From the NCBI GenBank assembly GCA_016212215.1, contig JACRGV010000089.1:1-64000 (forward strand): a stretch of DNA of 64,000 nucleotides, given 5' to 3'. A program made the position numbers and the translations under genes. The notes below the pieces were generated by a model. It was not told where the DNA came from. It made no database searches and saw only the letters and a program-made list of their open reading frames with translations. Below are positions 64 to 62,778 of the stretch, one piece after another; position 1 is the stretch's first letter, and the number at the start of each line of letters is the position of its first letter. The DNA is from Nitrospirota bacterium. Its GTDB lineage: Bacteria; Nitrospirota; 9FT-COMBO-42-15; HDB-SIOI813.

Positions 64-168
64 TCATCATGTTGTACCATAGATGGCAACCAGAACGCAA
101 GTAGTTTTTTCGTGTCACCACGCCTCACTGAAGGGTTACAAATTAACCCATTAAAGTATTACAGTCAA

Positions 169-198
169 TTGACAACCCAATCTTTGCTTTGTTATATT
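169..198 (+). promoter_or_regulatory. sigma-70-type promoter for the PstS-like/GGDEF pair
   Basis: TTGACA at 169-174 is followed after 17 bp by TTATAT (192-197; TATATT overlaps it). Transcription would start near 205 and leave a 65-70 nt leader before the ATG at 273. The rest of 64-272 holds no convincing gene. Confidence 0.6.
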
Positions 199-7412: not shown

Positions 7413-8135
7413 TTAAGGATTGGATTTTTGATTTATAATACTCAGGATTTTTTCTACAACTTCTTCAATTGAAAGTCCAGTGGTATCTATAACTATTGCG
7501 TCTTTCGCTCTTCTTAAAGGGTCAATCTCCCTGTTCTTATCATTTTCATCCCTGCTGATTACCTCTTTGACAGTTTCCTCCAGCGTAACATTGGCTCCCT
7601 TATCCTGCAATTCCTTCCATCTTCTCTTTCCACGCTCATTAATATCCGCATCAAGATAGAATTTAAAGGGGGTATCAGGAAAAACTACAGTCCCGATGTC
7701 TCTTCCTTCTACAACAACGCCGCCATATTTTTTAGCCCAGCTAAGCCCGATCTCCCTCTGCATTCTTACAAGATATTTTCTTACAGAGGCAAAAACAGAC
7801 ACAGCAGACGCCATCCTGCTGATCTCCGGTGTCCTTATTTCTTCTGAGATATCCTTACCGTCAACTATTACCCTAAGATGACCATCTACCAGTTCCATAT
7901 CAAGTTGGATGGTAGCACATATTTTGTCAAATGATTCATCCGAAAATGCCCATGGCTTCCCCTCCCCTCGCGGGAGGGGATTAAGGGGAGGGGGATTCCG
8001 TGAATATACCTTCCACCCTATGGCCCTGTACATTGCGCCTGTATCAAGATATGCAAATCCAGCCGTCTTGGCAACTAGTCTCGCAATAGTACTCTTGCCG
8101 CTCCCGACAGGGCCGTCTATGGCAATGATATGCAT
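7413..8135 (-). CDS. cmk: cytidylate kinase with in-frame repeat insertion
   Basis: CMP/dCMP kinase, 240 residues, usually about 220. The P-loop GPVGSGKST is at residues 8-16, DTGAMYRAIG follows, and the CMP-binding motif EIRTPEI and catalytic EGRDIGTVVFPD are present. About 19 residues (47-65, PPPLNPLPRGEGKPW) between YSR and the NMP-binding part match nothing in the family and are the translation of a cassette II intergenic repeat (see 7933-7998). The insertion keeps the frame and sits in a surface loop after the first helices, so the enzyme could still fold. Confidence 0.93.
   Translation of the reverse strand: MHIIAIDGPVGSGKSTIARLVAKTAGFAYLDTGAMYRAIGWKVYSRNPPPLNPLPRGEGKPWAFSDESFDKICATIQLDMELVDGHLRVIVDGKDISEEIRTPEISRMASAVSVFASVRKYLVRMQREIGLSWAKKYGGVVVEGRDIGTVVFPDTPFKFYLDADINERGKRRWKELQDKGANVTLEETVKEVISRDENDKNREIDPLRRAKDAIVIDTTGLSIEEVVEKILSIINQKSNP
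7933..7998. repeat. cassette II repeat with border remnant inside cmk
   Basis: GATTCATCCGAAAATG (a border-module end, minus orientation) at 7934-7949 is followed by CCCCTCCCCTCGCGGGAGGGG and a GGGGAGGGGG tail. The same unit fills gaps throughout the window. Here it is read through in frame by cmk. Confidence 0.85.
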
Positions 8136-11300: not shown

Positions 11301-11482
11301 AAGTCCTCATAAACCCTTAATGACCTCCAGCGATACTCCAGTGCCTTTTCCTGAGGCATGTCCTGAAATGTCAGTATAGCCTCAGTAGCAGACCTGACCT
11401 CATCATCTCTCTTTATTTCTGAGTTGTTACCGGCACAGGAAACAAGCATGAGGATTGAGAGTAATAGTAAAAACTTTTTCAT
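8324..11482 (-). CDS. large TPR-repeat lipoprotein
   Basis: The 1052-residue protein starts with a lipoprotein signal (MLVSC, cysteine 16) and then consists almost wholly of TPR-like helix pairs, many with the LAEIYFELKDYDKAAEEYEK or YRIGDVTTEAVYKMGEMLEH style. It is probably an outer-membrane or periplasmic scaffold of the YbgF/BamD-like type; no enzyme domain is visible. The last classical TPR is near residues 960-1040. The final ten residues come from an intergenic repeat, which suggests that the original C-terminus was altered. It overlaps the upstream TPR gene by 4 bp, so both are co-translated and may form one complex. Confidence 0.8.
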   Translation of the reverse strand: MKKFLLLLSILMLVSCAGNNSEIKRDDEVRSATEAILTFQDMPQEKALEYRWRSLRVYEDFIRVHKDFRSKLMADSMEQLADIYMEIEENTYLRYKKRFDHSKSRQIYEAILNAYPDRPENENILYHLARGYMEEGNRERSIIFLERITKEFPNGMYSHEANFRLGEYYFENNQMPKAIHYYKQVMKIDDFNLYDKSLYKLGWAHFITKDYEEAADRFMLLLDRKGVRLTPEGKEEIHNISIVERDLINDAIKTLVLVFEYIGEPARLANYFKVRGIQTFEPYVYRKLGDIYIESGRFREAADIYDAFVNTNPLHEDAPVFQYKIIEAYTKGNMIDLAYNARVKFVESYMEDSLWFKSNKRGAQKRVKELVDLNKTLVKSDMYQLAKYHYSNAHSTKKEKDYKEAILWIRRFIDIFPQEPESATLRNMLIETNFLLAEIYFELKDYDKAAEEYEKVAYKYQQSDYTGEASYRVLLALEKIARPGGKVRSDNTFALRFAESCKKFVDRFPKDKRVPEVLLNSAETYFMVGKFEEARAMAKPVTEHPLSSQKERYMAQRYIAESFLKEQVYNKSEDEIKKAIALIPESDKQDLPLLERALAGSLYKQAEDIKAKDKKFEAAEAYERVYKTVPNSDIAPVALLDAGVLFEDASQIGRAVNSYQVLVNKYPESRYSFDAANRWGELMEGYKDYTEAAKIYEKASAITPDEAKKEEMLFRSVQMYEKTGNQEGYNKQYKKFEETFPKSTKTIELTFKMASAKGAAKDLISEKELYDKVIALHKKLGASATIEATEFAAKAQVVLTDSKKASFEDLKLISPLEENLKKKQVLLKEALAGYTAAAKYRIGDVTTEAVYKMGEMLEHIKEAILNSEKPAELTTEQLEEYDIMLEEQASPFEEKAISTYEGNVRKTTEEGIYNEWSKKSYERLSKLLPARYKRVEAGERFTGDINSPVAEDPVVYNSRGLTYLDNGEFKKAETDFLKSLSIKHDFSDALLNLGILTELYLGKPAEALKNYKEYVKSGGKREDVAVWINVLEKRVGMKIGGSEQKQEGRSKK

Positions 11483-12669
11483 GGGAGATTAAAGTTCATT
11501 TCGTTATTTATGCGGCCGCCGCCCTCCAGATGGAGATTGCGGGCCATTTCCAACGAGGTCTTTGCCGACTCCTCCAATAATTTTAATTTTAATGCCTTAA
11601 TATCCTTACCCGCGTCCTCTTTGATTGTATCAAGAATCTCTTTTCTCAAGGTTTGGGAATCGCTGATAAGCGGCCCTGTGTCGGAAGAAATAATGTTTTT
11701 AATATCAGTAATAGTTTCTTCCATAGATACAAGGCCATTATAAAGGTTGAGTTTCTCAATCAGGTCATCATTTCCGGTTATTTCCACAGTGTGTTTCAGC
11801 CTGCCGGTATCCTGATTCGGGATATCGTTTTCTATAACCTGAACCCTCTTCAATAAATCCTCATAAAATTTTATGGCATTGCCATTCTGTTCCAAAGCCT
11901 TGCCGTAGGCGCTTAAGGTAGTGTATGCATGACCGATGTACGGCATCACCTCCCGTGCATAAGGGCTGTCAGGAGAGGCAACGGCAAGCTCTTCCCAAAA
12001 GATTACAGTCCTTACCCATCTACCCATATTTGCATAAGCCCATCCCGAACCATACAGAGCCTGTGAATATAAAGGGCTGTCTTCAGGGATGAGGGCAAAG
12101 TGTCTTCCTGCCTCTGAATGATTAGCCTGATTCATGTAAATAAATCCCAGTAAAAGATGCGTCCTTTCTCCAAGGTCTTTTACCTCAGGGTTCTCTGTCA
12201 GCTTTGCGGTTTTACTGTCGGGGATATTTTTTATTATCTGTTCAAGAGATTCTGCGGCTTCGTTATATTTGTCTGTGTTAATGCTTATTAAAGCCTTAGT
12301 GTATAATGCCTTATAATAGAATTTACTCTTAGACTGGACCTTTTCTATTGAATTCTTTGCCTCTGGAAATTTCCCGGTCTTTAACAGGCTGTTTGCCATT
12401 AAATAATTTGATTCGTCAATAATCTCCTGAGGTATCTCCTGAATTGAACTGCCGTCCATACCTGAAAATGCCGTGACTGCATCAGCCCATGCCATTATAT
12501 TATAAAGCATCTTACCCTTTTCAAAAGACACCATTGAAGGAGAGCCTTCAACAGGTAGGTTGAGTATCTGCGAAGGGATGTCAGAGGCTGAGGCATGATT
12601 TAAAATATGGGGGGTAATAACAGAGAGAAAAGAGAGTAGTATTATTAAACGAAATAAAAACCTTTTCAT
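11479..12669 (-). CDS. secreted TPR-repeat protein
   Basis: The 396-residue protein has a signal peptide (residues 1 to about 29, cleavage near ASA) and five or six degenerate TPR units (about 60-260, for example TKALISINTDKYNEAAESLE and YGSGWAYANMGRW). A helical C-terminal part (about 265-390) looks like coiled coil. No catalytic motif is visible. Its stop overlaps the start of the 1052-residue TPR lipoprotein, so the pair likely works together in the envelope. The start codon directly abuts a cassette II repeat. Confidence 0.75.
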   Translation of the reverse strand: MKRFLFRLIILLSFLSVITPHILNHASASDIPSQILNLPVEGSPSMVSFEKGKMLYNIMAWADAVTAFSGMDGSSIQEIPQEIIDESNYLMANSLLKTGKFPEAKNSIEKVQSKSKFYYKALYTKALISINTDKYNEAAESLEQIIKNIPDSKTAKLTENPEVKDLGERTHLLLGFIYMNQANHSEAGRHFALIPEDSPLYSQALYGSGWAYANMGRWVRTVIFWEELAVASPDSPYAREVMPYIGHAYTTLSAYGKALEQNGNAIKFYEDLLKRVQVIENDIPNQDTGRLKHTVEITGNDDLIEKLNLYNGLVSMEETITDIKNIISSDTGPLISDSQTLRKEILDTIKEDAGKDIKALKLKLLEESAKTSLEMARNLHLEGGGRINNEMNFNLP

Positions 12670-12775
12670 CCGAAAATAAACCCCATCCCCTCCCTAACCC
12701 TCCCCCATTCAGTGTCGGGGAGGGAATAAACTAAGCACCCTCTCCCTCAGGGAGAGTGTCCGGGTGAGGGTGGGG
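12669..12775. repeat. intergenic cassette II repeats
   Basis: Reverse-oriented purine/pyrimidine units (TCCCTAACCCTCCCCCATTC, CTCTCCCTCAGGGAGAG) with GGGTGAGGGTGGGGTTTTC leading into the border module. They begin at the first codon of the TPR gene. Confidence 0.85.
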
Positions 12776-12780
12776 TTTTC

Positions 12781-12948
12781 ATTGTCATTTGTGAATCCCC
12801 GGTTCATCTGGGTTCATCCGAAAATCCCTCCGGCGGGGTAAGAAAACCCCGCCTATCCATTTCTACGAGGATAGGCGGGACTTTCTTGTCCCGCTGATTT
12901 TCATGGCCCTTTGTGAGCGCCCCGCTCATGGTGGTTCACCCGAAAATC
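12781..12948. repeat. border + cassette I + border (minus orientation)
   Basis: A full module: border hairpin, GGCGGGGTAAGAAAACCCCG, CCTATCC...GGATAGG, GGGACTTTCTTGTCCC, then a second border with GTGAGCGCCCCGCTCA. This and the neighbouring repeats fill the 424-bp gap before acuC; no gene is seen there. Confidence 0.9.
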
Positions 12949-12951
12949 CTT

Positions 12952-13033
12952 TTCTGTCATTCCCGCATGTCTTAAGCGGGAATCTTTCTTTATTAACACT
13001 ATATCCCCGATAGAAACATTCGGGGATGACAGT
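12952..13033. repeat. family E palindromes (TTCCCGC / CCCCGATAG)
   Basis: ATTCCCGC (12959-12966) pairs with GCGGGAAT (12976-12983). CCCCGA (13005-13010) pairs with TCGGGG (13020-13025) around TAGAAACAT. The second hairpin recurs at 35614-35634 and the first at 41420-41442. Confidence 0.7.
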
Positions 13034-13093
13034 TATTAATTTGCGGGGCTATTTTTATCTGCCTGTGTGACATAGTGTCATGAAAGTTCCAGA

Positions 13094-18417: not shown

Positions 18418-18478
18418 TTTATAATCCGGATAGGCGGGGTTTTCTAACCCCGCCGGAAAGATTTCTGGATGAACAGTG
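18418..18478. repeat. partial cassette I and border end
   Basis: GGATAGGCGGGGTTTTCTAA, then CCCCGCCGGAAAGATTTC and TGGATGAAC. The closing ATGAAC supplies the start codon of the next gene and GGAAAG its weak Shine-Dalgarno. Confidence 0.85.
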
Positions 18479-19062
18479 AACAGTTTAAAATCATACAAAT
18501 CGTCCCTCCTGATTGGTGTTTCAAGTGTGATGTATGCTGCAGGTTTCCTGAGAGTACCAGCTTTCTTGCACCTTATTTTACTGCTGAAGAGATTAATAGG
18601 GTATTTCCCCCTCCCTTGGCTGGAGTAGGTCAGGAAGAATCAAAAAATTCCCTCCCCTTCAAGGGGAGGGATAGGGTGGGGATGGGGTTATTTCCGAATA
18701 AATCAGGCTGCAAGATTACATTGATAGCCGGAGGCGAAGCATATATATGCCCGGCCTTTGATCTGCCGACTGCACATTGCCTGATATATAATGTCCGCCC
18801 CTTTGACTGCGAATTATATCCTTATGCTTTAATGCGGGATGAGTCAGGAGAAAACGTGGTAATTGGGGTTGATACAAAGTGTCCTTATGTAAGAGAAAAT
18901 ATAGGTGCGAATATTTTCACGGCCGCTGCGAGTGACATTGCAAATGCTATTGAGTCCTCTCCCCTTATTGAAATTATCTCTGAAAACAGAGACCTCATAG
19001 GCCCTTTTCAGGATGACGTGATTTCTTTAATTATGTTGAAAAAACTCTCAGACCTTCTTTAA
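18469..19062 (+). CDS. YkgJ-type cysteine-cluster protein with repeat insertion
   Basis: The 197-residue protein has the cysteine cluster of the YkgJ/CxxCxxCC family: WCFKCDVCCRFP near the start, then GCKI, YICPAFD, HCLIYNVRPFDCELYP and later CPYV. These cysteines are thought to bind a metal or Fe-S centre; the function is unknown. Between FTAEEINRV and FPNKSGCKI lie about 30 residues (PPPLAGVGQEESKNSLPFKG...RVGMGL) translated from a cassette II repeat. The stop is directly followed by the ATG of the DUF2156 gene. The two are an operon, and both carry the same insertion. Confidence 0.82.
   Translation: MNSEQFKIIQIVPPDWCFKCDVCCRFPESTSFLAPYFTAEEINRVFPPPLAGVGQEESKNSLPFKGRDRVGMGLFPNKSGCKITLIAGGEAYICPAFDLPTAHCLIYNVRPFDCELYPYALMRDESGENVVIGVDTKCPYVRENIGANIFTAAASDIANAIESSPLIEIISENRDLIGPFQDDVISLIMLKKLSDLL
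18605..18700. repeat. cassette II repeat inside the YkgJ-like gene
   Basis: CCCTCCCCTTCAAGGGGAGGG and GGGTGGGGATGGGGTTATTT with upstream pyrimidine tract. The final ATTTCCGAAT resembles a border end. Confidence 0.85.
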
Positions 19063-20085
19063 ATGGATTTACCCTTAAGTCAATTCGGATTAAAACCCCT
19101 CTTGCTGTCGGACAAACCCTTTATTGACAACATACTCAACACCGTTGATTCCATCCTATCTTCTTATACATTCACTACCCACTACATCTGGAGGGATATT
19201 TTCCAATTTTACTGGGGGATTATTGATAACTACTTCTGCCTGTTTGCAGTGTACGGTGATTATATCTACATGCCCATTCCACCTTCGATCATTCCCACTC
19301 TCCAAATTGAAAAGTTGGGATGGGGGCAGGGGGAGTTTCAAAATTCCCTCCCCTTCAAGGGGAGGGTTAGGGTGGGGATGGGGTTATTTCCGGATGAACA
19401 CTATGCGCAAACAATCTCCAAACTCTTTTCAATTATGCACAGAATCAACAATAACCCTGCTGTTTCCCGGATAGAAAATATTGATGAATCCATGAAAGAA
19501 GCCTTCTTGTCTATGGGCTATAATCTCAATGCAGGAGAACCGGAATACGTTTACCTGCGTGAAGAACTGGTAACCCTCAAAGGTAATCCCTTCAAATCCA
19601 AAAGGGCAATGTATAATTATTTTGTAAAAAATTATACATACAGTTTTGTAGAATTTCAGTCCGCCCATGTAGAAGAGTGTATGAGGTTATTTGAGCGATG
19701 GAAAAAGGATAGAGGAAGGAAACCTAATGACGACCTTTTCCTGTATCAGGCACTGCTTGAGGATGCATCATATTCGCACAAGCAGGCAATAACGAATTAT
19801 GAGTCCCTCTCATTAACCGGCCGTGTAGTGCAAATAGATGAGAGGATAGAAGGATACACATTCGGTTTCAGGAGGGGCGATGTCTTCTATATACTGATGG
19901 AGATTACGAATCCTGAAATTAAAGGACTATCCCAGTTTATCTTCAGGGAATTATGCCGGGAACTTTCAGACTACACGTTCATCAATACCCTTGGTGATTC
20001 CGGTCTGACCAATCTTCGCAATGCAAAGCTTTCATACAGGCCGTATAAAGTTGTACCCGGCTACATAGCGTACCCATTCAGCTAG
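19063..20085 (+). CDS. DUF2156 (LPG synthase C-terminal-like) protein with repeat insertion
   Basis: The 340-residue protein resembles DUF2156, the GNAT-related double domain found at the C-terminus of lysyl-phosphatidylglycerol synthases. Typical features are THYIWRDIF..YWGIIDNY near the start, KRAMYNYF and IEGYTFGFRRGDVFYILMEI. It lacks membrane segments, so it is the soluble stand-alone form. About 25 residues (WGQGEFQNSLPFKGRVRVGM) after MPIPPS are repeat-derived and read in the same frame as the insertion in the preceding gene. The substrate is unknown. Confidence 0.82.
   Translation: MDLPLSQFGLKPLLLSDKPFIDNILNTVDSILSSYTFTTHYIWRDIFQFYWGIIDNYFCLFAVYGDYIYMPIPPSIIPTLQIEKLGWGQGEFQNSLPFKGRVRVGMGLFPDEHYAQTISKLFSIMHRINNNPAVSRIENIDESMKEAFLSMGYNLNAGEPEYVYLREELVTLKGNPFKSKRAMYNYFVKNYTYSFVEFQSAHVEECMRLFERWKKDRGRKPNDDLFLYQALLEDASYSHKQAITNYESLSLTGRVVQIDERIEGYTFGFRRGDVFYILMEITNPEIKGLSQFIFRELCRELSDYTFINTLGDSGLTNLRNAKLSYRPYKVVPGYIAYPFS
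19310..19402. repeat. cassette II repeat inside the DUF2156 gene
   Basis: CCCTCCCCTTCAAGGGGAGGG and GGGTGGGGATGGGGTTATTT, ending in CCGGATGAAC, the border end. It is nearly identical to the copy 700 bp upstream. Confidence 0.87.
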
Positions 20086-20106: not shown

Positions 20107-20345
20107 TGGCCATGAAAAGCAGCGGGACAAGAATGTCCCGCCTATCCTCGTAGAAATGGATAGGCGGGGTTTTCTTACCCCGCCGGAGAGGGTTTTCGGA
20201 TGAACCCACATGAACCAGGGTTCACAAAGGGCAATGAAAACCCCACCCTCACCCGGACCCTCTCCCTGAGGGAGAGGGGGCTATGTTGATTCCCTCCCCT
20301 TCAAGGGGAGGGGTAGGGTGGGGATGGGGTTGATTTTCGGATGAA
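20107..20345. repeat. cassette I + border + cassette II + border end
   Basis: GGGACAAGAATGTCCC, CCTATCC/GGATAGG and GCGGGG/CCCCGC hairpins are followed by the border (ATGAACCAGGGTTCAC) and two cassette II palindromes, closing with GATTTTCGGATGAA. Bases 20197-20345 match 53891-54039 at all but two positions. This fills the convergent gap; no gene is seen. Confidence 0.92.
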
Positions 20346-23109: not shown

Positions 23110-23365
23110 TGTTTCATCCGAAAATCCTTCCGGCGGGGTAAGAAAACCCCGCCTATCCAGATATATATTATGGATAGGTGGGACATTCTTGTCCCATCCA
23201 TTTTCATCCCCCTTTATGAGCGACACGCTCATGAAAGTTCATCCGAAAATCACCGCTTCAAATCCCCCCAGACCCCCTTTGAAAAAGGGGGATTTTCATA
23301 GCAATCTTGCTTCCAACTTCTTGCCTCTTACTTCTGCTTACTGTTAACTGCTTACCGCTTACTTT
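23110..23365. repeat. border + cassette I + border + cassette II + family C/D tracts
   Basis: A minus-oriented module with a variant cassette I (GTGGGACATTCTTGTCCCAT) and border hairpin TGAGCGACACGCTCA. A short CCCCCAGACCCCCTTTGAAA unit and TTACTTCTGCTTACTG tracts run up to the end of murJ. This is a second gap with no gene. Confidence 0.85.
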
Positions 23366-24911
23366 TCAACATCCCCCACAAAAACTGCAGCTCTTTATTT
23401 TTAGATACATGAAGTACAGCAATATAAGCCAATGTACTCAAAACTATACCGGCGATGAGTATGCCTGTCTTCAGTAGAAGATTGCCGTTTGTTCCCCAGA
23501 TATTCCCGCGGGTAATTAACCATCCCACTATGCCCATTAGTATGTTGGCAGGTATCACTGTTTTCATCGAACCTATTATCTCCCTAAGATTTATCCTGCC
23601 GAGCTTCTTTCTTAGTGCATAGATCAGGAATGATAAATTTACCATCGCTGCAACAGATGTTGCCAGAGCCAGTCCGCCGTGCCTTAACGGTTTCATAAGG
23701 GCAATGGAGAGTGCTATATTTACTATCACCGCAATTACACCTGCCTTGACCGGTGTCTTTGTGTCCTGCAGGGAGTAGAAGACCTGGGCAGTTACCCTTG
23801 TACCTGCAAATGCCCACAGGCCGATTGAATAATACAACAGTGCATCTGCTGTTCCGAGTGTAGCAGTAAAATCAAATGCCCTCGATTGAAACAAGACACT
23901 TACAATAGGGATTCTCAATACTATCAGCCCGACCATGGCGGGCAGGGTTATAAATAACAGGAGTCTTGCTGCAAAGGAATAGGTATTCCGTACCTCTGCA
24001 TAATCCTTCTTAACAGCAGAAGCAGAAAGCGTAGGAAGGATCGCTGACGACATTGCCACCCCGAATATACCGAGCGGAAAATGGATAAGCCTTATCCCAT
24101 AGTAGAGATATGCAACACTCCCCTCATCCAGATAAGAGGAAAGGACTGTGTTCACAAATATGTTCACCTGAGTCACAGAAAGACCGAGAATCATCGGAAT
24201 CATCAGCTTGCCGATCCGAATCAGGCCGGGATGGGAGGGCTTAAAATACCACCCCATCTTCATGTCCCTTTTCCATAGGGAAGGTATCTGGAGTGCAAAC
24301 TGGCATATACCGCCCAGAAACACACCGATTGCAAGACCGTATATGGGGATACTGAAGAGCGGGGCAAAGATATATACACCGCTGATCATTAAGATTGATA
24401 ATGCCACAGATGAAAGGCCGGGTATTACAAACGAACCGAGTGTATTCAATATGCCCATGAACAGGGCAGCTATTGACACAAAGAGGAGGTAGGGAAACAT
24501 TATCTGAGTAAGACGGACTGTAAGAACAAACTTGTCACCTGCGGCATGAAAGCCTGGTGCAATAAGGGCCACTACCCACGGGGCAGCGGCAATACCTATA
24601 ACAGTTACTATCAAGAGAACTACAATCAGGATTGTAAAAGTGGATTTGGCAACCTTCAATGCCTCTTCCTTTCCCTCCTCATGAAGGTAACCGCTGAAAA
24701 CCGGTATAAAGGCCGCTGACATTGAACCTTCTGCAAACAGTTCTCTTAAAAGTCCTGGAATACGGTAAGCAACAAAAAATGCATCCGCCACCATCCCTGC
24801 ACCAAATACCCGCGCAACAACCATATCCCGTACAAACCCGAATATCCTGCTTATCAGGGTTGTGCTTCCAAGTATCGCCGCCGCCTTTGTAACCTTTTCT
24901 TGATTATTCAT
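23352..24911 (-). CDS. murJ: lipid II flippase MurJ (MviN)
   Basis: The 519-residue integral membrane protein moves lipid II across the inner membrane for peptidoglycan synthesis. It has about 14 membrane helices and the MurJ/MviN signatures STLISRIFGFVRDMVVARVF near the start, DAFFVAYRIPGLLRELFAEG and SAAFIPVF. I use the ATG at 24911 (MNNQEKVTK). A longer reading would begin in cassette II repeats (PPPLNPLPQGEGR), which are not part of the family. Confidence 0.94.
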   Translation of the reverse strand: MNNQEKVTKAAAILGSTTLISRIFGFVRDMVVARVFGAGMVADAFFVAYRIPGLLRELFAEGSMSAAFIPVFSGYLHEEGKEEALKVAKSTFTILIVVLLIVTVIGIAAAPWVVALIAPGFHAAGDKFVLTVRLTQIMFPYLLFVSIAALFMGILNTLGSFVIPGLSSVALSILMISGVYIFAPLFSIPIYGLAIGVFLGGICQFALQIPSLWKRDMKMGWYFKPSHPGLIRIGKLMIPMILGLSVTQVNIFVNTVLSSYLDEGSVAYLYYGIRLIHFPLGIFGVAMSSAILPTLSASAVKKDYAEVRNTYSFAARLLLFITLPAMVGLIVLRIPIVSVLFQSRAFDFTATLGTADALLYYSIGLWAFAGTRVTAQVFYSLQDTKTPVKAGVIAVIVNIALSIALMKPLRHGGLALATSVAAMVNLSFLIYALRKKLGRINLREIIGSMKTVIPANILMGIVGWLITRGNIWGTNGNLLLKTGILIAGIVLSTLAYIAVLHVSKNKELQFLWGMLKSKR

Positions 24912-25050
24912 CCGAAAATCTCCATAGCTCACCCTCCCCCTACCCCCTCCCGTCAAGGGAGGGGGAATCTTAGGCAATCTTTCATATCTCCCCTCCCCTT
25001 GCGGGAGGGGATTAAGGGGAGGGGGCCTCATTTTCATCTTCCTTTGTGAT
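24905..25050. repeat. border ends enclosing cassette II units (minus orientation)
   Basis: TTCATCCGAAAATC, then CCTCCCGTCAAGGGAGGGGG and CCCTCCCCTTGCGGGAGGGG, ending CTCATTTTCATCTTCCTTTG (degenerate border). It overlaps the murJ start codon. Confidence 0.83.
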
Positions 25051-33344: not shown

Positions 33345-33545
33345 AGTTATCATCCGATAATCCCTTCCGGCGGGGTAAGAAAACCCCGCCTATCCCTATC
33401 TACGAGGATAGGCGGGACTTTCTTGTCCCGCTGATTTTCATGGCCCTTTGTGAACCCTCGGCTCATGGGGGTTCATCCGAAAATAACCCCCACCCTACCC
33501 TTCCCCTTATAAGGGGAAGGGTAGGGAATAAACTCAGTCCCCTCT
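33345..33545. repeat. border + cassette I + border + cassette II (minus orientation)
   Basis: Starts CATCCGATAATC, runs through GGCGGGGTAAGAAAACCCCG and GGGACTTTCTTGTCCC, then border hairpin TGAACCCTCGGCTCA and ACCCTTCCCCTTATAAGGGG palindrome. Confidence 0.9.
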
Positions 33546-40441: not shown

Positions 40442-40496
40442 CAGGAACTTCGTCTTGACCCAGCATACCTGATACTGCTATTTTATTTTATGCCAA

Positions 40497-40640
40497 TGAA
40501 ACGTCCATGAGCGGGGCGTTCACAAAGGGTGATGAAAATCAGCGGGACAAGAAAGTCCCGTCTATCCTCGTAGAAATGGATAGGCGGGGTTTTCCAACCC
40601 CGCCGGAAGGGATTTTCGCATGAACGCGCATGAGCGGTGT
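40497..40640. repeat. border + cassette I + degenerate border at the hsdM break point
   Basis: Border hairpin TGAGCGGGGCGTTCA, GGGACAAGAAAGTCCC, CCTATC...GGATAGG with GCGGGG/CCCCGC, then ATTTTCGCATGAACGCGCAT. The last copy of ATGAGC provides the start codon of the HsdM fragment. Confidence 0.9.
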
Positions 40641-52033: not shown

Positions 52034-52548
52034 ATGAAACGTTCATGAGTGTGGTGCTCACAAAGGGAAATGAAAATAGTAAATAGTAAGCAGTGAGCAG
52101 TAAACAGGAAAGGCAGTCTTTATCTGCTAACTGCTTACCGCTTACTGCTTACTTGGGGTCATTTTCGGATGAACTTTCATGAGCGGGGCGCTCACAAAGG
52201 GGGATGAAAATGAGTGGGACAAGAATGTCCCACCTATCCTTGATCTATATCTGGATAGGCGGGGTTTTCTTACCCCGCCGGAAGGGATTTTCGGATGAAC
52301 CCACATGAACCAGGGTTCACAAAGGGCCATGAAAATCAGCGGGACAAGAAAGTCCCGCCTATCCTCGTTAAAAGGGATAGGCGGGGTTTTCCAACCCCGC
52401 CGGAGGTGATTTTCGGATGAACCGTCATGAGCGGGGAGCTCACAAAGGGAAATGAAAATAGTAAGCAGTGAGCAGTAAACAGGAAAGGCAGTCTTTATCT
52501 GCTAACTGCTTACCGCTTACTGCTTACTTGGGGTCATTTTCGGATGAA
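52034..52548. repeat. array of border modules alternating with cassettes D, I, I, D
   Basis: Order: border (52034-52078), cassette D (52085-52153), border (52160-52210), cassette I (52211-52286), border (52287-52337), cassette I (52338-52407), border (52408-52459), cassette D (52460-52528), border end (52535-52548). Cassette D is itself a palindrome, AGTAAGCAGT...ACTGCTTACT. Bases 52085-52173 and 52460-52548 are identical over 89 bp. This fills the whole gap between ribBA and ribH; no gene is seen. Confidence 0.93.
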
Positions 52549-52562
52549 TAAAGGGGGTAATT

Positions 52563-53030
52563 ATGCCGGAGCCTATTGAAGGGAATATTATTGGGACAGG
52601 TCTCAAAGTTGGGGTAGTGGTAAGTAAGTTCAATGATTTTATAACTAACAGGCTGTTGGCAGGTGCATTGGAGGCATTCAAACAGTGCGCTGTAGAAGAT
52701 GGGAATATAACAATAGCAAAAGTTCCCGGGTCTTTTGAAATACCAATGGTTGCAAAGAAGATGGCTGAATCAAATAAGTATGATGCAGTTGTATGTCTTG
52801 GCGCAGTCATCAGAGGGGCGACACCTCATTTTGATTACATTGCAGCAGAAGTTACAAAAGGGATTGCAGGGATAAGCCTTGACTCAGGAATACCTGTGAT
52901 ATACGGTGTCTTAACAACTGATACAGTAGACCAGGCCATTGAAAGGGCAGGCTCAAAGAACAGGAACAAAGGCTGGGATGCGGCTGTCCATGCAGTTGAA
53001 ATGGCGAATCTATATAAACTGTTGGGGTAA
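52563..53030 (+). CDS. ribH: 6,7-dimethyl-8-ribityllumazine synthase
   Basis: The 155-residue enzyme joins the ribBA product with the pyrimidine to give the riboflavin precursor, forming pentamers or icosahedral shells. It shows [20 protein letters not shown], the substrate loop [35 protein letters not shown] and [25 protein letters not shown] lies a few bases before the ATG. It continues the riboflavin cluster and precedes nusB, a common order. Confidence 0.95.
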
Positions 53031-53240
53031 ACAGTCATGATCCTTCGGCTCACAAAGGATGATGAAAATTAAGGCCACCTCACCATGCCCCCCTCCTGCC
53101 TCCCCCCCGCAAAGGAGGGGGGAGGAATTTGGTAGGAATTTAATTGCAGCTCTCCCGCCAGGGGAGAGGGTACATGGTTTTATTCCCCCTCCCTTGACGG
53201 GAGGGGGTTAGGGGGAGGGTGAGCTATGGAGCATTTTCGG
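53031..53240. repeat. border + long cassette II + border end
   Basis: Border hairpin TGATCCTTCGGCTCA, then CCCCCTCCTGCCTCCCCCCC, GGAATTTAATTGCAGCTCTC and CCCTCCCTTGACGGGAGGG, ending CATTTTCGGGTAAA. The same layout recurs at 58746-58965. Confidence 0.88.
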
Positions 53241-53265
53241 GTAAAGCAGAGGGTAAGTAAAAAAT

Positions 53266-53688
53266 ATGGGTTACAGGCGAAAGGCAAGGGAGTTTGCTCT
53301 GCAGATGTTGTATCAGTATGACGTTAGTCATGAGTTCGAACATCTGATAGATGAGTTCTGGAGTAATAAAGATGTACCGGATGACATAAAAGAGTTTGCC
53401 GGTAATATCGTAGAGGGTGTTATTAAAGGTGAAACTTCAATAGATGAAATGATAAATAGGTCAGCCGAGAACTGGAGTATAGACAGGATGGCAGTAGTGG
53501 ATAGAAATATCATGCGCATAGCAGCTTATGAATTTTTAAACATTCAGGAAATCCCTGTAAAGGTTACAATTAATGAGGCAATAGAGATTGCCAAAAAGTT
53601 CGGCGGAGAAGAGTCCGGCTCTTTTATAAACGGCATCCTTGACAGGATTGTAAGGGATAATAAAGATAAAGTTAGCAGTAAGCTGTAA
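53266..53688 (+). CDS. nusB: transcription antitermination factor NusB
   Basis: The 140-residue all-helical RNA-binding protein works with NusE on boxA in rRNA transcription. The N-terminal arginine-rich RRKAREFALQMLYQYD and the C-terminal VKVTINEAIEIAKKFGGEESGSFINGILDRI are family signatures. It follows ribH, as in many genomes. Its final residues (KDKVSSKL) and stop are formed by a family D repeat (GTTAGCAGTAAGCTG...), so the true C-terminus may have been replaced. Confidence 0.93.
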   Translation: MGYRRKAREFALQMLYQYDVSHEFEHLIDEFWSNKDVPDDIKEFAGNIVEGVIKGETSIDEMINRSAENWSIDRMAVVDRNIMRIAAYEFLNIQEIPVKVTINEAIEIAKKFGGEESGSFINGILDRIVRDNKDKVSSKL

Positions 53689-54039
53689 GCAGTAAACAGA
53701 AGTTAGATGTAAGAGGCAAGAAGTAAGAAAGATAGAAGCAAGAGGCAAGAAGTAAGAAAGAAAATAGGATAAGCCTCATGAGCCTCCGGTTCACAAAGGA
53801 TGATGAAAATGAGCGGGACAAGAATGTCCCGCATATCGTTAAATATAAAGCTGTATAGGCGGGGTTTTCTAACCCCGCCGGAAGGATTTACGGATGAACC
53901 CACATGAACCAGGGTTCACAAAGGGCAATGAAAACCCCACCCTCACCCTAACCCTCTCCCTGAGGGAGAGGGGGCTATGTTGATTCCCTCCCCTTCAAGG
54001 GGAGGGGTAGGGTGGGGATGGGGTTGATTTTCGGATGAA
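53672..54039. repeat. family D/C tracts, border + cassette I + border + cassette II
   Basis: GTTAGCAGTAAGCTGTAAGC, AAGAAAGATAGAAGCAAGAG, border TGAGCCTCCGGTTCA, a variant cassette I (GGGACAAGAATGTCCC, GTATAGGCGGGG), border TGAACCAGGGTTCA, cassette II pair and GATTTTCGGATGAA. The last 149 bp duplicate 20197-20345. This fills the nusB-purB gap of 363 bp. Confidence 0.92.
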
Positions 54040-58739: not shown

Positions 58740-59092
58740 GCCAAAAATGAACCGTCATGAGCCTCCGGCTCACAAAGGATGATGAAAATGAGGCCCCCTC
58801 ACCCGTGCCCCCCTCCTGCCTCCCCCCGCAAAAGAGGGGGGAGGAATTTGGAAGGAATTGAATTGCAGCTCTCCCGCCACGGGAGAGGGATGCAAAGTTT
58901 TTCCCCCCTCCCTTGACGGGAGGGGGGTTAGTGGGAGGGTGAGCTATGGAGATTTTAGGATGAACTCCCATGAGCCGGGGGTTCACAAAGGGCCATGAAA
59001 ATCAGCGGGACAAGAAAGTCCCGCCTATCCTCGTAGAAATGGATAGGGGGGGTTTTCTTACCCCGCCGGAGGGGATTTTCGGATGAATCTTC
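58740..59092. repeat. border + long cassette II + border + cassette I + border end
   Basis: Border TGAGCCTCCGGCTCA, CCCCCTCCTGCCTCCCCCCG, GGAATTGAATTGCAGCTCTC and CCCTCCCTTGACGGGAGGG, border TGAGCCGGGGGTTCA, GGGACAAGAAAGTCCC, CCTATCC/GGATAGG and GATTTTCGGATGAA. The end supplies GGAGGGG and the ATG of cheW. It fills the whole 343-bp gap. Confidence 0.92.
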
Positions 59093-61465: not shown

Positions 61466-61680
61466 GTAGCAGTAAGTAGAGGTAAGAAGTTAGAAGTAAG
61501 AAGCAAGATAAGATTAAGACTAAGATTGATATTGAGTTAAGCCATATGTAAGAGAGTATGCAATATTTATTTCCCCTCACTTGGCGGGAGGGGGGGGGGG
61601 CGGGACAAGAATGTCCCGCCTATCCTCGTTGATATGGATAGGCGGGGTTTTCTTACCCCGCCGGAAGGGATTTTCGAGTG
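61466..61680. repeat. family C tract, cassette II fragment and cassette I with border end
   Basis: AGGTAAGAAGTTAGAAGTAA tract, CACTTGGCGGGAGGGGGGGG, then GGGACAAGAATGTCCC, CCTATCC/GGATAGG, GCGGGG/CCCCGC and GATTTTCGAGTGAA. GGAAGGG and the closing GTG serve as ribosome site and start of the aminotransferase gene. Confidence 0.88.
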
Positions 61681-62778
61681 AAACTAAATTTTATTGACCT
61701 TAAACAACAGTACACAAAATATAAATCAGAGATTGATCAGGGGATTGCGGAGGTTGTTAACAGTACGCAGTTCATTATGGGGCCTAAGGTAAGTGAACTT
61801 GAACAGACACTTGCGGAATATGTGGGTGTGAGATTCGGGATAAGTGTAAGCTCCGGTACTGATGCACTTCTACTTGCACTCCTGGCTTATGGTGTTAAGA
61901 GCGGGGATGAGATATTATGTCCGCCTTTTACATTTATTGCTACAGCAGAGGTTATAGCATTACTTGGTGCAAAGCCTGTATTCGTTGATATAGATGAAAA
62001 GACCTATAATATAAATCCGCTGCTTATCGAAGAAAAGATTAATAAAAATACAAAAGGGACTATTCCGGTAAGTTTATACGGGCAGGCTGCTGAAATGGAT
62101 GCAATCAATGCTATTGCAGACAGGCATGGCATTTTTGTTGTTGAAGACGGGTGCCAGTCATTCGGCAGCATATACAAGGGAAAGAGGTCATGCGGTTTCA
62201 GGGATATCGGCGTTACCTCCTTTTTTCCTTCAAAACCGCTTGGATGTTATGGTGACGGCGGGATGATATTTACTGATAATGAAGAGAAGGCCGGCATAAT
62301 GAAGAGTCTTCGTGACCACGGGCAGGAGAAGAGATACAAACATAAATACATCGGGATTAACGGCAGGCTTGATGCTATTCAGGCGGCAGTACTGCTTGCA
62401 AAGTTCAGGCATTTTGAGGAAGAGGTAAAACTCCGTGAGATAAAGGCTTTTTATTATAATGAAGGACTTAGAGATGTTGTTATTACCCCTTATGTAGAAA
62501 ATTATAATTCATCTGTTTATGCCCAGTATTCAATCAGAACAGACAGGCGGGATGACCTGAGTAAATACCTGAATGATAACGGCATACCTACTGCAATCCA
62601 TTATCCTATACCCTTACATTTCCAAGAGGCATTCAACTATCTTGGATACAAAGAGGGTGATTTTCCTGTAAGTGAAAAGGTTTCTTCAGAGATATTGTCG
62701 CTTCCAATGTTCCCGTTTATTACAAATGAGGAACAGGATTATGTGATTGGGAAGGTGCGGGAGTTTTTTAAGAAGTAA
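61678..62778 (+). CDS. DegT/DnrJ/EryC1-family sugar aminotransferase
   Basis: The 366-residue PLP enzyme adds an amino group to a keto-sugar nucleotide. It has FIDLKQQYTKYKSEIDQGI, the PLP-phosphate loop SSGTDALLLAL, EDGCQSFGSIYKG and the PLP lysine Lys186 in SFFPSKPLGCYGDGG, followed by DHGQEKRYKHKYIGINGRLD, all typical of WbpE/WecE-type enzymes. GTG start at a border-module end. The GDP-mannose pyrophosphorylase gene follows, so the region likely makes surface polysaccharide sugars. The exact sugar is unknown. Confidence 0.92.
   Translation: MKLNFIDLKQQYTKYKSEIDQGIAEVVNSTQFIMGPKVSELEQTLAEYVGVRFGISVSSGTDALLLALLAYGVKSGDEILCPPFTFIATAEVIALLGAKPVFVDIDEKTYNINPLLIEEKINKNTKGTIPVSLYGQAAEMDAINAIADRHGIFVVEDGCQSFGSIYKGKRSCGFRDIGVTSFFPSKPLGCYGDGGMIFTDNEEKAGIMKSLRDHGQEKRYKHKYIGINGRLDAIQAAVLLAKFRHFEEEVKLREIKAFYYNEGLRDVVITPYVENYNSSVYAQYSIRTDRRDDLSKYLNDNGIPTAIHYPIPLHFQEAFNYLGYKEGDFPVSEKVSSEILSLPMFPFITNEEQDYVIGKVREFFKK

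What the first reader, a model, noticed from the sequence alone, without database searches (positions are those of the whole stretch)
52034..52548. Modular repeat array: one border module alternating with interchangeable palindromic cassettes
The gap between ribBA and ribH is built as border-D-border-I-border-I-border-D-border end. The same border (GATTTTCGGATGAA, hairpin, CACAAAGG, ATGAAAAT) also flanks cassette II at 20197, 53031, 53891 and 58746. So a constant module of about 50 bp separates variable but recurrent palindromic cassettes. I know of REP/BIME and MITE repeats, but not of one with this swap-in cassette structure. It suggests a site-specific insertion or recombination process acting at the border.
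Basis: partly seen in the sequence, partly recalled or inferred. Interest (0 to 1): 0.8.

Follow-up and report, generated by a model that had tools for sequence, protein, structure and literature searches.

The report
Two-hairpin mobile repeats carrying interchangeable palindromes
The repeat array is built from roughly 125-230-base mobile DNA units, each with a small self-folding hairpin at its head, one of many unrelated palindromes in its middle, and a tail that often serves as the start codon of the next gene, so they can pile up head-to-tail beside genes; the same unit ends occur in several bacterial phyla and no enzyme that moves them was found.

Summary
The array is real and far beyond chance: the genome (G000, 3.0 Mb) holds 223 exact tails and 264 head motifs, against 0 for the reversed control. 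But the "border" is not a module. It is the tail of one unit (ATTTTCGGATGAA) joined to the head of the next (covarying hairpin, then CACAAAGGNNNATGAAAAT). The variable triplet in the head is linked to the cassette of its own unit (0/5000 shuffles) and not to the preceding cassette, so head + cassette + tail is what multiplies. Cassettes are at least five unrelated palindromes in no fixed order (K1-K2 7x, K2-K1 7x). Cassette-less 62-base units exist, so the cassette sits in the loop of a second hairpin, GAAAAT/ATTTTC. Relatives have empty sites, and some carry a different palindrome at the same site. Tails sit on start codons in about half of terminal units, and a few units lie in frame inside genes. 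The same ends occur in Nitrospirota, Nitrospinota, Cloacimonadota and Smithella. No Y1/RAYT transposase and no reverse transcriptase was found in this genome. The unit works most like a palindrome-associated transposable element (PATE) invaded by other repeats. A hairpin-bridged ribosome-binding site is possible but failed a constraint test. Mobilising enzyme: unknown.

The parts
52034..52173 (+). Unit 1 (cassette D = K5): HP1 52046-52060, CACAAAGG 52059-52066, ATGAAAAT 52070-52077, palindrome, tail 52161-52173
52169..52299 (+). Unit 2 (cassette I = K1): CACAAAGG 52193-52200, tail 52287-52299
52295..52421 (+). Unit 3 (cassette I = K1): CACAAAGG 52318-52325, tail 52409-52421
52417..52548 (+). 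Unit 4 (cassette D = K5): CACAAAGG 52441-52448, tail 52536-52548, followed by the ribosome-binding site and start of ribH
   Evidence: the site is empty in G002, G006, G007, G008, G009
53027..53245 (+). Solo unit (163-bp C-rich palindrome, K3) between ribH and nusB; GTAAA on both sides
   Evidence: the site is empty in G002, G004, G006-G009
53769..54039 (+). Two-unit array K1-K2 between nusB and an adenylosuccinate-lyase-like gene
58747..59087 (+). Two-unit array K3-K1; the tail ATG at 59083 is the first codon of the CheW-like gene
   Evidence: G002 has the same gene start without the array
61590..61682 (+). Head-less K1 unit; the tail GTG at 61678 is the first codon of a DegT/DnrJ-like gene
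40496..40624 (+). Solo K1 unit
20112..20345 (+). Head-truncated K1 unit followed by a K2 unit
12665..13084 (-). Three-unit array K10-K1-K2; the tail ATG at 12669 starts ORF 11479-12669
   Evidence: empty in G002
23113..23246 (-). K1 unit
24907..25048 (-). Unit with a C-rich palindrome and atypical head
33349..33484 (-). K1 unit preceded by the tail of another unit
19330..19398 (+). Head-less unit read in frame inside ORF 19063-20085 (..NSLPFKGRVRVGMGLFPDE..); the G002 orthologue has a K1 palindrome here
18640..18703 (+). Head-less unit read in frame inside ORF 18469-19062
7935..8000 (-). Palindrome plus tail read in frame (..KPWAFSDES..) inside the cytidylate kinase gene

Best explanation
The array is made of transposase-free mobile elements. 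Shown: a unit is a short hairpin (HP1, stem covarying), a fixed CACAAAGG-NNN-AT linker, and a second stem GAAAAT/ATTTTC (HP2) whose loop holds one of several unrelated palindromes, ending in NN(A/G)TGAA; units are absent from orthologous sites in relatives, and head and cassette are inherited together. Inferred: units insert next to (A/G)TGAA-like sequence. Because every unit ends in (A/G)TGAA, a new unit can insert behind an old one, giving head-to-tail arrays, and a unit inserted at a start codon hands the gene a new ATGAA, so the gene survives; harmful insertions are lost by selection. Inferred: other palindromic repeats entered or replaced each other in the HP2 loop in the past. Inferred and weakest: movement is by a single-strand (HUH-type) transposase acting in trans, as for IS200/IS605-derived PATEs, because there are two folded ends, no terminal inverted repeats and no clear target duplication. 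Deletion between the ATGAA repeats around the head would give the head-less copies.
For: Copy number with zero reversed control. Empty sites in relatives. Linkage of head and own cassette, none with the preceding cassette. Cassette-less units: 5 in G299, 1 in L146. HP1 covariation: 93.1% paired vs 74.6 +- 1.5% shuffled, 44 double changes vs 11.8 +- 2.7; 58 stems, 3.10/4 Watson-Crick vs 1.56 +- 0.12. Tail ATG opens an ORF of at least 60 codons in 24/55, 16/39 and 44/87 terminal units, vs 0-2 in frame +1. Gene start to the right of the tail 47 vs to the left of the head 14, p=1e-7. Left and right 5-mers share a consensus but are barely correlated in solo units. Different palindromes at one site in related genomes. 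A cassette repeat living without the wrapper in G016, G020, G138. Ends shared across phyla.
Against: No Y1_Tnp in G000, which has the most copies, nor in G006, G007, G299, G301 or G303; Y1 genes elsewhere are not flanked by these ends. Same-site cassette differences could be independent insertions. The site at 53027-53245 has GTAAA on both sides, which looks like a target duplication. Some tails lie upstream of a native ribosome-binding site rather than on a start codon (ribH). The GAAAAT/ATTTTC pair could be read as short inverted repeats.
Confidence: 0.62

Rival explanations
1. Border-directed cassette exchange: borders are fixed recombination sites, like attC, and palindromic cassettes are swapped in and out between them by a site-specific recombinase.
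For: Different palindromes at one site in related genomes; the same HP1 stem occurs with K1, K2 and K5 (67); linkage to the cassette decays with distance (triplet z 15.8, stem z 9.3, linker z 3.5).
Against: The head is strongly linked to its own cassette and not to the preceding one; cassette-less single units disperse by themselves; whole units are absent at orthologous sites. Recombinases other than Y1, IS110 and RT were not surveyed.
Confidence: 0.15
2. The unit is a translation-permissive element: AAAGG(AG) in the head is a Shine-Dalgarno sequence and HP2 with its palindrome is looped out, so that ribosomes bridge from it (5-7 nt) to the ATG in the tail, as in phage T4 genes 38 and 25. This could hold on top of the best explanation.
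For: Spacing without HP2 is 5-7 nt in all unit types (sequence); a T4 precedent exists, 22 nt reduced to 5 nt (PMC3014915); tail ATGs are start codons in about half of terminal units; any palindrome would serve, which would explain interchangeability.
Against: CACAAAGG is not better conserved in K1 units on start codons (mean 0.71 mismatches) than in array-internal ones (0.70). K1 tails already have purine-rich GGAAGGG/GGAGGTG 8 nt before the ATG. In-frame copies inside genes need no initiation.
Confidence: 0.2
3. IS110-type elements are the autonomous partners: the wrapper carrying an IS110 transposase moves and mobilises the short units.
For: 58%-identical IS110 transposases plus a related small downstream ORF sit inside the wrapper in Smithella (L213) and in G001 (L326).
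Against: IS110 is absent from most unit-rich genomes (14 of 19 lack it); the single IS110 of G000 is not in a wrapper. IS110 elements are known to insert into repeats, so it may be a passenger.
Confidence: 0.08
4. Ordinary intergenic palindromes (REP/BIME-like) amplified by a RAYT.
For: High copy number, intergenic palindromes, clusters.
Against: No Y1_Tnp in G000 (8); units are polar with two different ends, arrays are head-to-tail rather than alternating, and the stem sequence is free to vary.
Confidence: 0.07

Closest known systems
PATEs of Haloquadratum walsbyi, invaded by SMR-A repeats (PMC3119063)
   Same: Near-terminal palindromes, no terminal inverted repeats, no clear target duplication, too short for a transposase, very short cassette-less forms (52 bp there, 62 bp here), and unrelated roughly 100-bp repeats inserted within the near-terminal palindrome.
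   Different: PATE ends match IS605-type transposons of the same genome; no such transposon was found here. Here units form head-to-tail arrays, end in a start-codon-like ATGAA, and the same ends span several bacterial phyla.
Rickettsia palindromic elements (RPE; PMC10969869)
   Same: Palindromic repeats of several families, some read in frame inside housekeeping genes.
   Different: Here most copies lie between genes or on start codons, and all families share the same constant ends.
BOX elements of Streptococcus pneumoniae (PMC3049150)
   Same: Modular repeats with constant outer modules and a dispensable middle module predicted to fold on its own.
   Different: The BOX middle is copies of one boxB; here it is one of several unrelated palindromes. 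BOX has terminal inverted repeats and target duplications.
REP/BIME and RAYT systems (PMC2817692)
   Same: Hundreds of small palindromic intergenic repeats.
   Different: No RAYT here; polar units, head-to-tail arrays, stem sequence not conserved.

Membership tests
PATE (palindrome-associated transposable element) | Near-terminal palindromes | tested here: met
   HP1 covariation; HP2 seen in cassette-less units
PATE (palindrome-associated transposable element) | No target duplication | tested here: inconclusive
   Solo units: identical flanking 5-mers 24/130 vs 19.6 expected; one clear GTAAA/GTAAA case
PATE (palindrome-associated transposable element) | Ends related to IS605-type transposons | tested here: not met
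   No Y1_Tnp in G000; Y1 loci of related genomes carry no such ends within about 1.5 kb
REP/BIME with RAYT | Y1 (RAYT) transposase in the genome | tested here: not met
   0 matches of PF01797 in G000
MITE of a DDE transposon | Terminal inverted repeats and target duplication | tested here: inconclusive
   Ends are not inverted repeats of each other, apart from the internal GAAAAT/ATTTTC stem; duplication not supported in general. DDE transposases were not surveyed
Integron attC arrays | attC core sites (RYYYAAC..GTTRRRY) and an integron integrase | not tested
   Core motif not seen by eye in the head; integrases not searched
Known structured RNA | Match to an Rfam family | tested here: not met
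   0 gathering-threshold matches in 64 kb; below threshold mostly microRNA-like chance hits on palindromes
IS110 / bridge RNA element | DEDD transposase within the unit | tested here: not met
   The only IS110 of G000 is outside any unit; two wrapped cases exist elsewhere
RPE-like in-frame element | Insertion in frame inside genes | tested here: met
   For a minority only: 4 of 89 arrays plus three head-less copies in the window

The most novel reading that the evidence does not exclude
A cross-phylum family of minimal two-hairpin elements adapted to land on start codons without silencing the gene: the tail re-creates ATGAA and a Shine-Dalgarno sequence in the head is brought to it by looping out HP2, so any palindrome can ride in the loop. 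The free choice of palindromes would then follow from translation rather than from recombination.
Probability: 0.2. Interest if true: 0.82.

Novelty: new variant of a known kind. Interest (0 to 1): 0.62.

Why it matters
Hundreds of copies per genome and the same ends in several phyla make this a widespread, apparently undescribed class of small mobile DNA. It gives a concrete scaffold (constant head and tail, free loop) for asking how unrelated palindromic repeats spread together and how repeats can occupy start codons of genes without killing them. A search of the held papers for the conserved end sequences returned no description of such a repeat among the ten papers listed of 83 (that is not proof of absence).

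Tried and rejected
Rfam: no family. Y1/RAYT: none in G000 (8), none with matching ends elsewhere. Reverse transcriptase: none in G000. IS110 as the general mover: rejected on distribution. Target duplication: not supported in solo units. Shine-Dalgarno constraint at start sites: no difference from internal units. Association of the terminal cassette or its purine-rich 3' end with start codons: weak, p=0.11. Viral contigs: 47 matches read; nearly all are ordinary gene starts preceded by CACAAAGG; only L280 is a unit. Plasmid and phage collections: no match to the K1 unit. Direction of folding by G-U versus A-C counts: 13 versus 8, not decisive.

Full report
What was checked. The genome belongs to Nitrospirota, inferred because a relative of the same family (G006) matches a public Nitrospirae assembly: its contig C6 has the same length and the same match positions as L158.

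What the unit is. A full unit reads: (A/G)TGAA, about four to five bases, CATG, a hairpin (HP1), CACAAAGG, a variable triplet, ATGAAAAT, a palindromic cassette, ATTTTC, two bases, (A/G)TGAA. The HP1 stem is free in sequence but keeps pairing: over 51 distinct heads 93.1% of cells are paired against 74.6 +- 1.5% in shuffles, with 44 double changes against 11.8 +- 2.7; over 58 distinct stems 3.10 of 4 positions are Watson-Crick against 1.56 +- 0.12. Cassette-less units exist (five copies of CACAAAGGGAGATGAAAATTTTAATTTTCGTATGAA in the Nitrospinota genome G299, and one in L146), so the minimal unit is two hairpins and the cassette occupies the loop of the second (HP2, GAAAAT/ATTTTC).

The border is a junction. 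In 541 kb of G000 there are 136 complete units in 89 arrays of 1-5. The variable triplet in the head is strongly linked to the cassette that follows it (MI 1.27 bits, null 0.41 +- 0.05, 0 of 5000 shuffles, n=112) and not to the cassette before it (0.815, null 0.77 +- 0.10, n=44). Linkage weakens with distance from the cassette (triplet z 15.8, stem z 9.3, linker z 3.5). The multiplying thing is therefore head + cassette + tail, with some older reassortment. Cassette order is not fixed: K1-K2 7 times, K2-K1 7 times, with K3, K4, K5 and others mixed in.

Insertion. Orthologous gene pairs in relatives lack the units: ribBA-ribH is empty in five genomes, ribH-nusB in six, and the 12.7 kb site in G002. 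Tails and left flanks share an (A/G)TGAA consensus, but in solo units the two are barely correlated (24 of 130 identical, 19.6 expected), so a duplicated target is not supported in general; the GTAAA...GTAAA pair around 53027-53245 is an exception. In about half of terminal units (24/55 own, 16/39 family, 44/87 other genomes) the ATG or GTG of the tail opens an ORF of 60 codons or more; frame +1 gives 0-2. Units point towards gene starts (47 versus 14, p=1e-7). A few units or head-less units are read in frame inside genes, including cytidylate kinase. At 19.3 kb the G002 orthologue carries a K1 palindrome where G000 carries a K2-like one, and G006, G008 and G009 have other sequence there, palindromic in at least G006 and G009. 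A similar difference of palindrome at one site is seen before the gene at 61678 and in the 60.9-61.2 kb gap. This can be exchange or repeated insertion; it cannot be told apart here.

Distribution. The head motif is in all 10 genomes of the order and in 35 of 296 of the phylum. One cassette repeat (TCCCCCTTAATCCCCC) also lives in genomes without the head motif (G016, G020, G138), and in G008 only 10 of 23 copies have a head while 19 have a tail.

Mechanism. No Y1_Tnp and no reverse transcriptase was found in G000. Two folded ends, no terminal inverted repeats and no clear duplication are what IS200/IS605-derived PATEs show, and in Haloquadratum unrelated roughly 110-bp repeats (SMR-A) insert within PATE palindromes (PMC3119063). 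That is the closest working model; membership is not claimed because the defining link to an IS605-type transposon was tested and not met. IS110 genes inside the wrapper in Smithella and G001 look like passengers or a side branch. A bridged Shine-Dalgarno start, as in T4 genes 38 and 25 (PMC3014915), fits the spacing (5-7 nt without HP2) but a conservation test did not support it.

Limits. The genome is a draft, G000 statistics rest on 541 kb, relatives are mostly other genera, and DDE, serine and tyrosine recombinases were not surveyed.

Noticed in passing
L213:4353-5943 and L326 (minus strand, about 485-2060): IS110-family transposase plus a related small downstream ORF inside the head/tail wrapper in two phyla (58% identical transposases).
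   Followed up: partly
window 7935-8000 (-), 18640-18703, 19330-19398: Palindrome plus tail read in frame inside cytidylate kinase and two other genes, like Rickettsia palindromic elements.
   Followed up: partly
L384, L390, L395-L414 (G008): Copies missing the head but keeping the tail outnumber the reverse (10 versus 1), perhaps by deletion between the ATGAA repeats around the head.
   Followed up: partly
window 53660-53770: AT-rich AGAAGTAAGAAGCAAGA-type repeats after nusB, related in style to the D cassette arms but without unit ends.
   Followed up: no
window 61580-61610: Run of G (GGGGGGGGGGG) directly before a head-less K1 unit.
   Followed up: no
L280 (viral contig), position 164-182 (-): The one viral contig with a genuine unit: paired hairpin CCGATTAGTCGG, CACAAAGG and a near-empty second stem.
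   Followed up: no
L128, L138, L143, L164, L196, L201, L223 (Smithella): Two tail subtypes (GGTGCATTTTCGAGTGAAA and GTGTATTTTCAGAGGAAA) with slightly different upstream letters, so the tail sequence is carried by the unit.
   Followed up: partly
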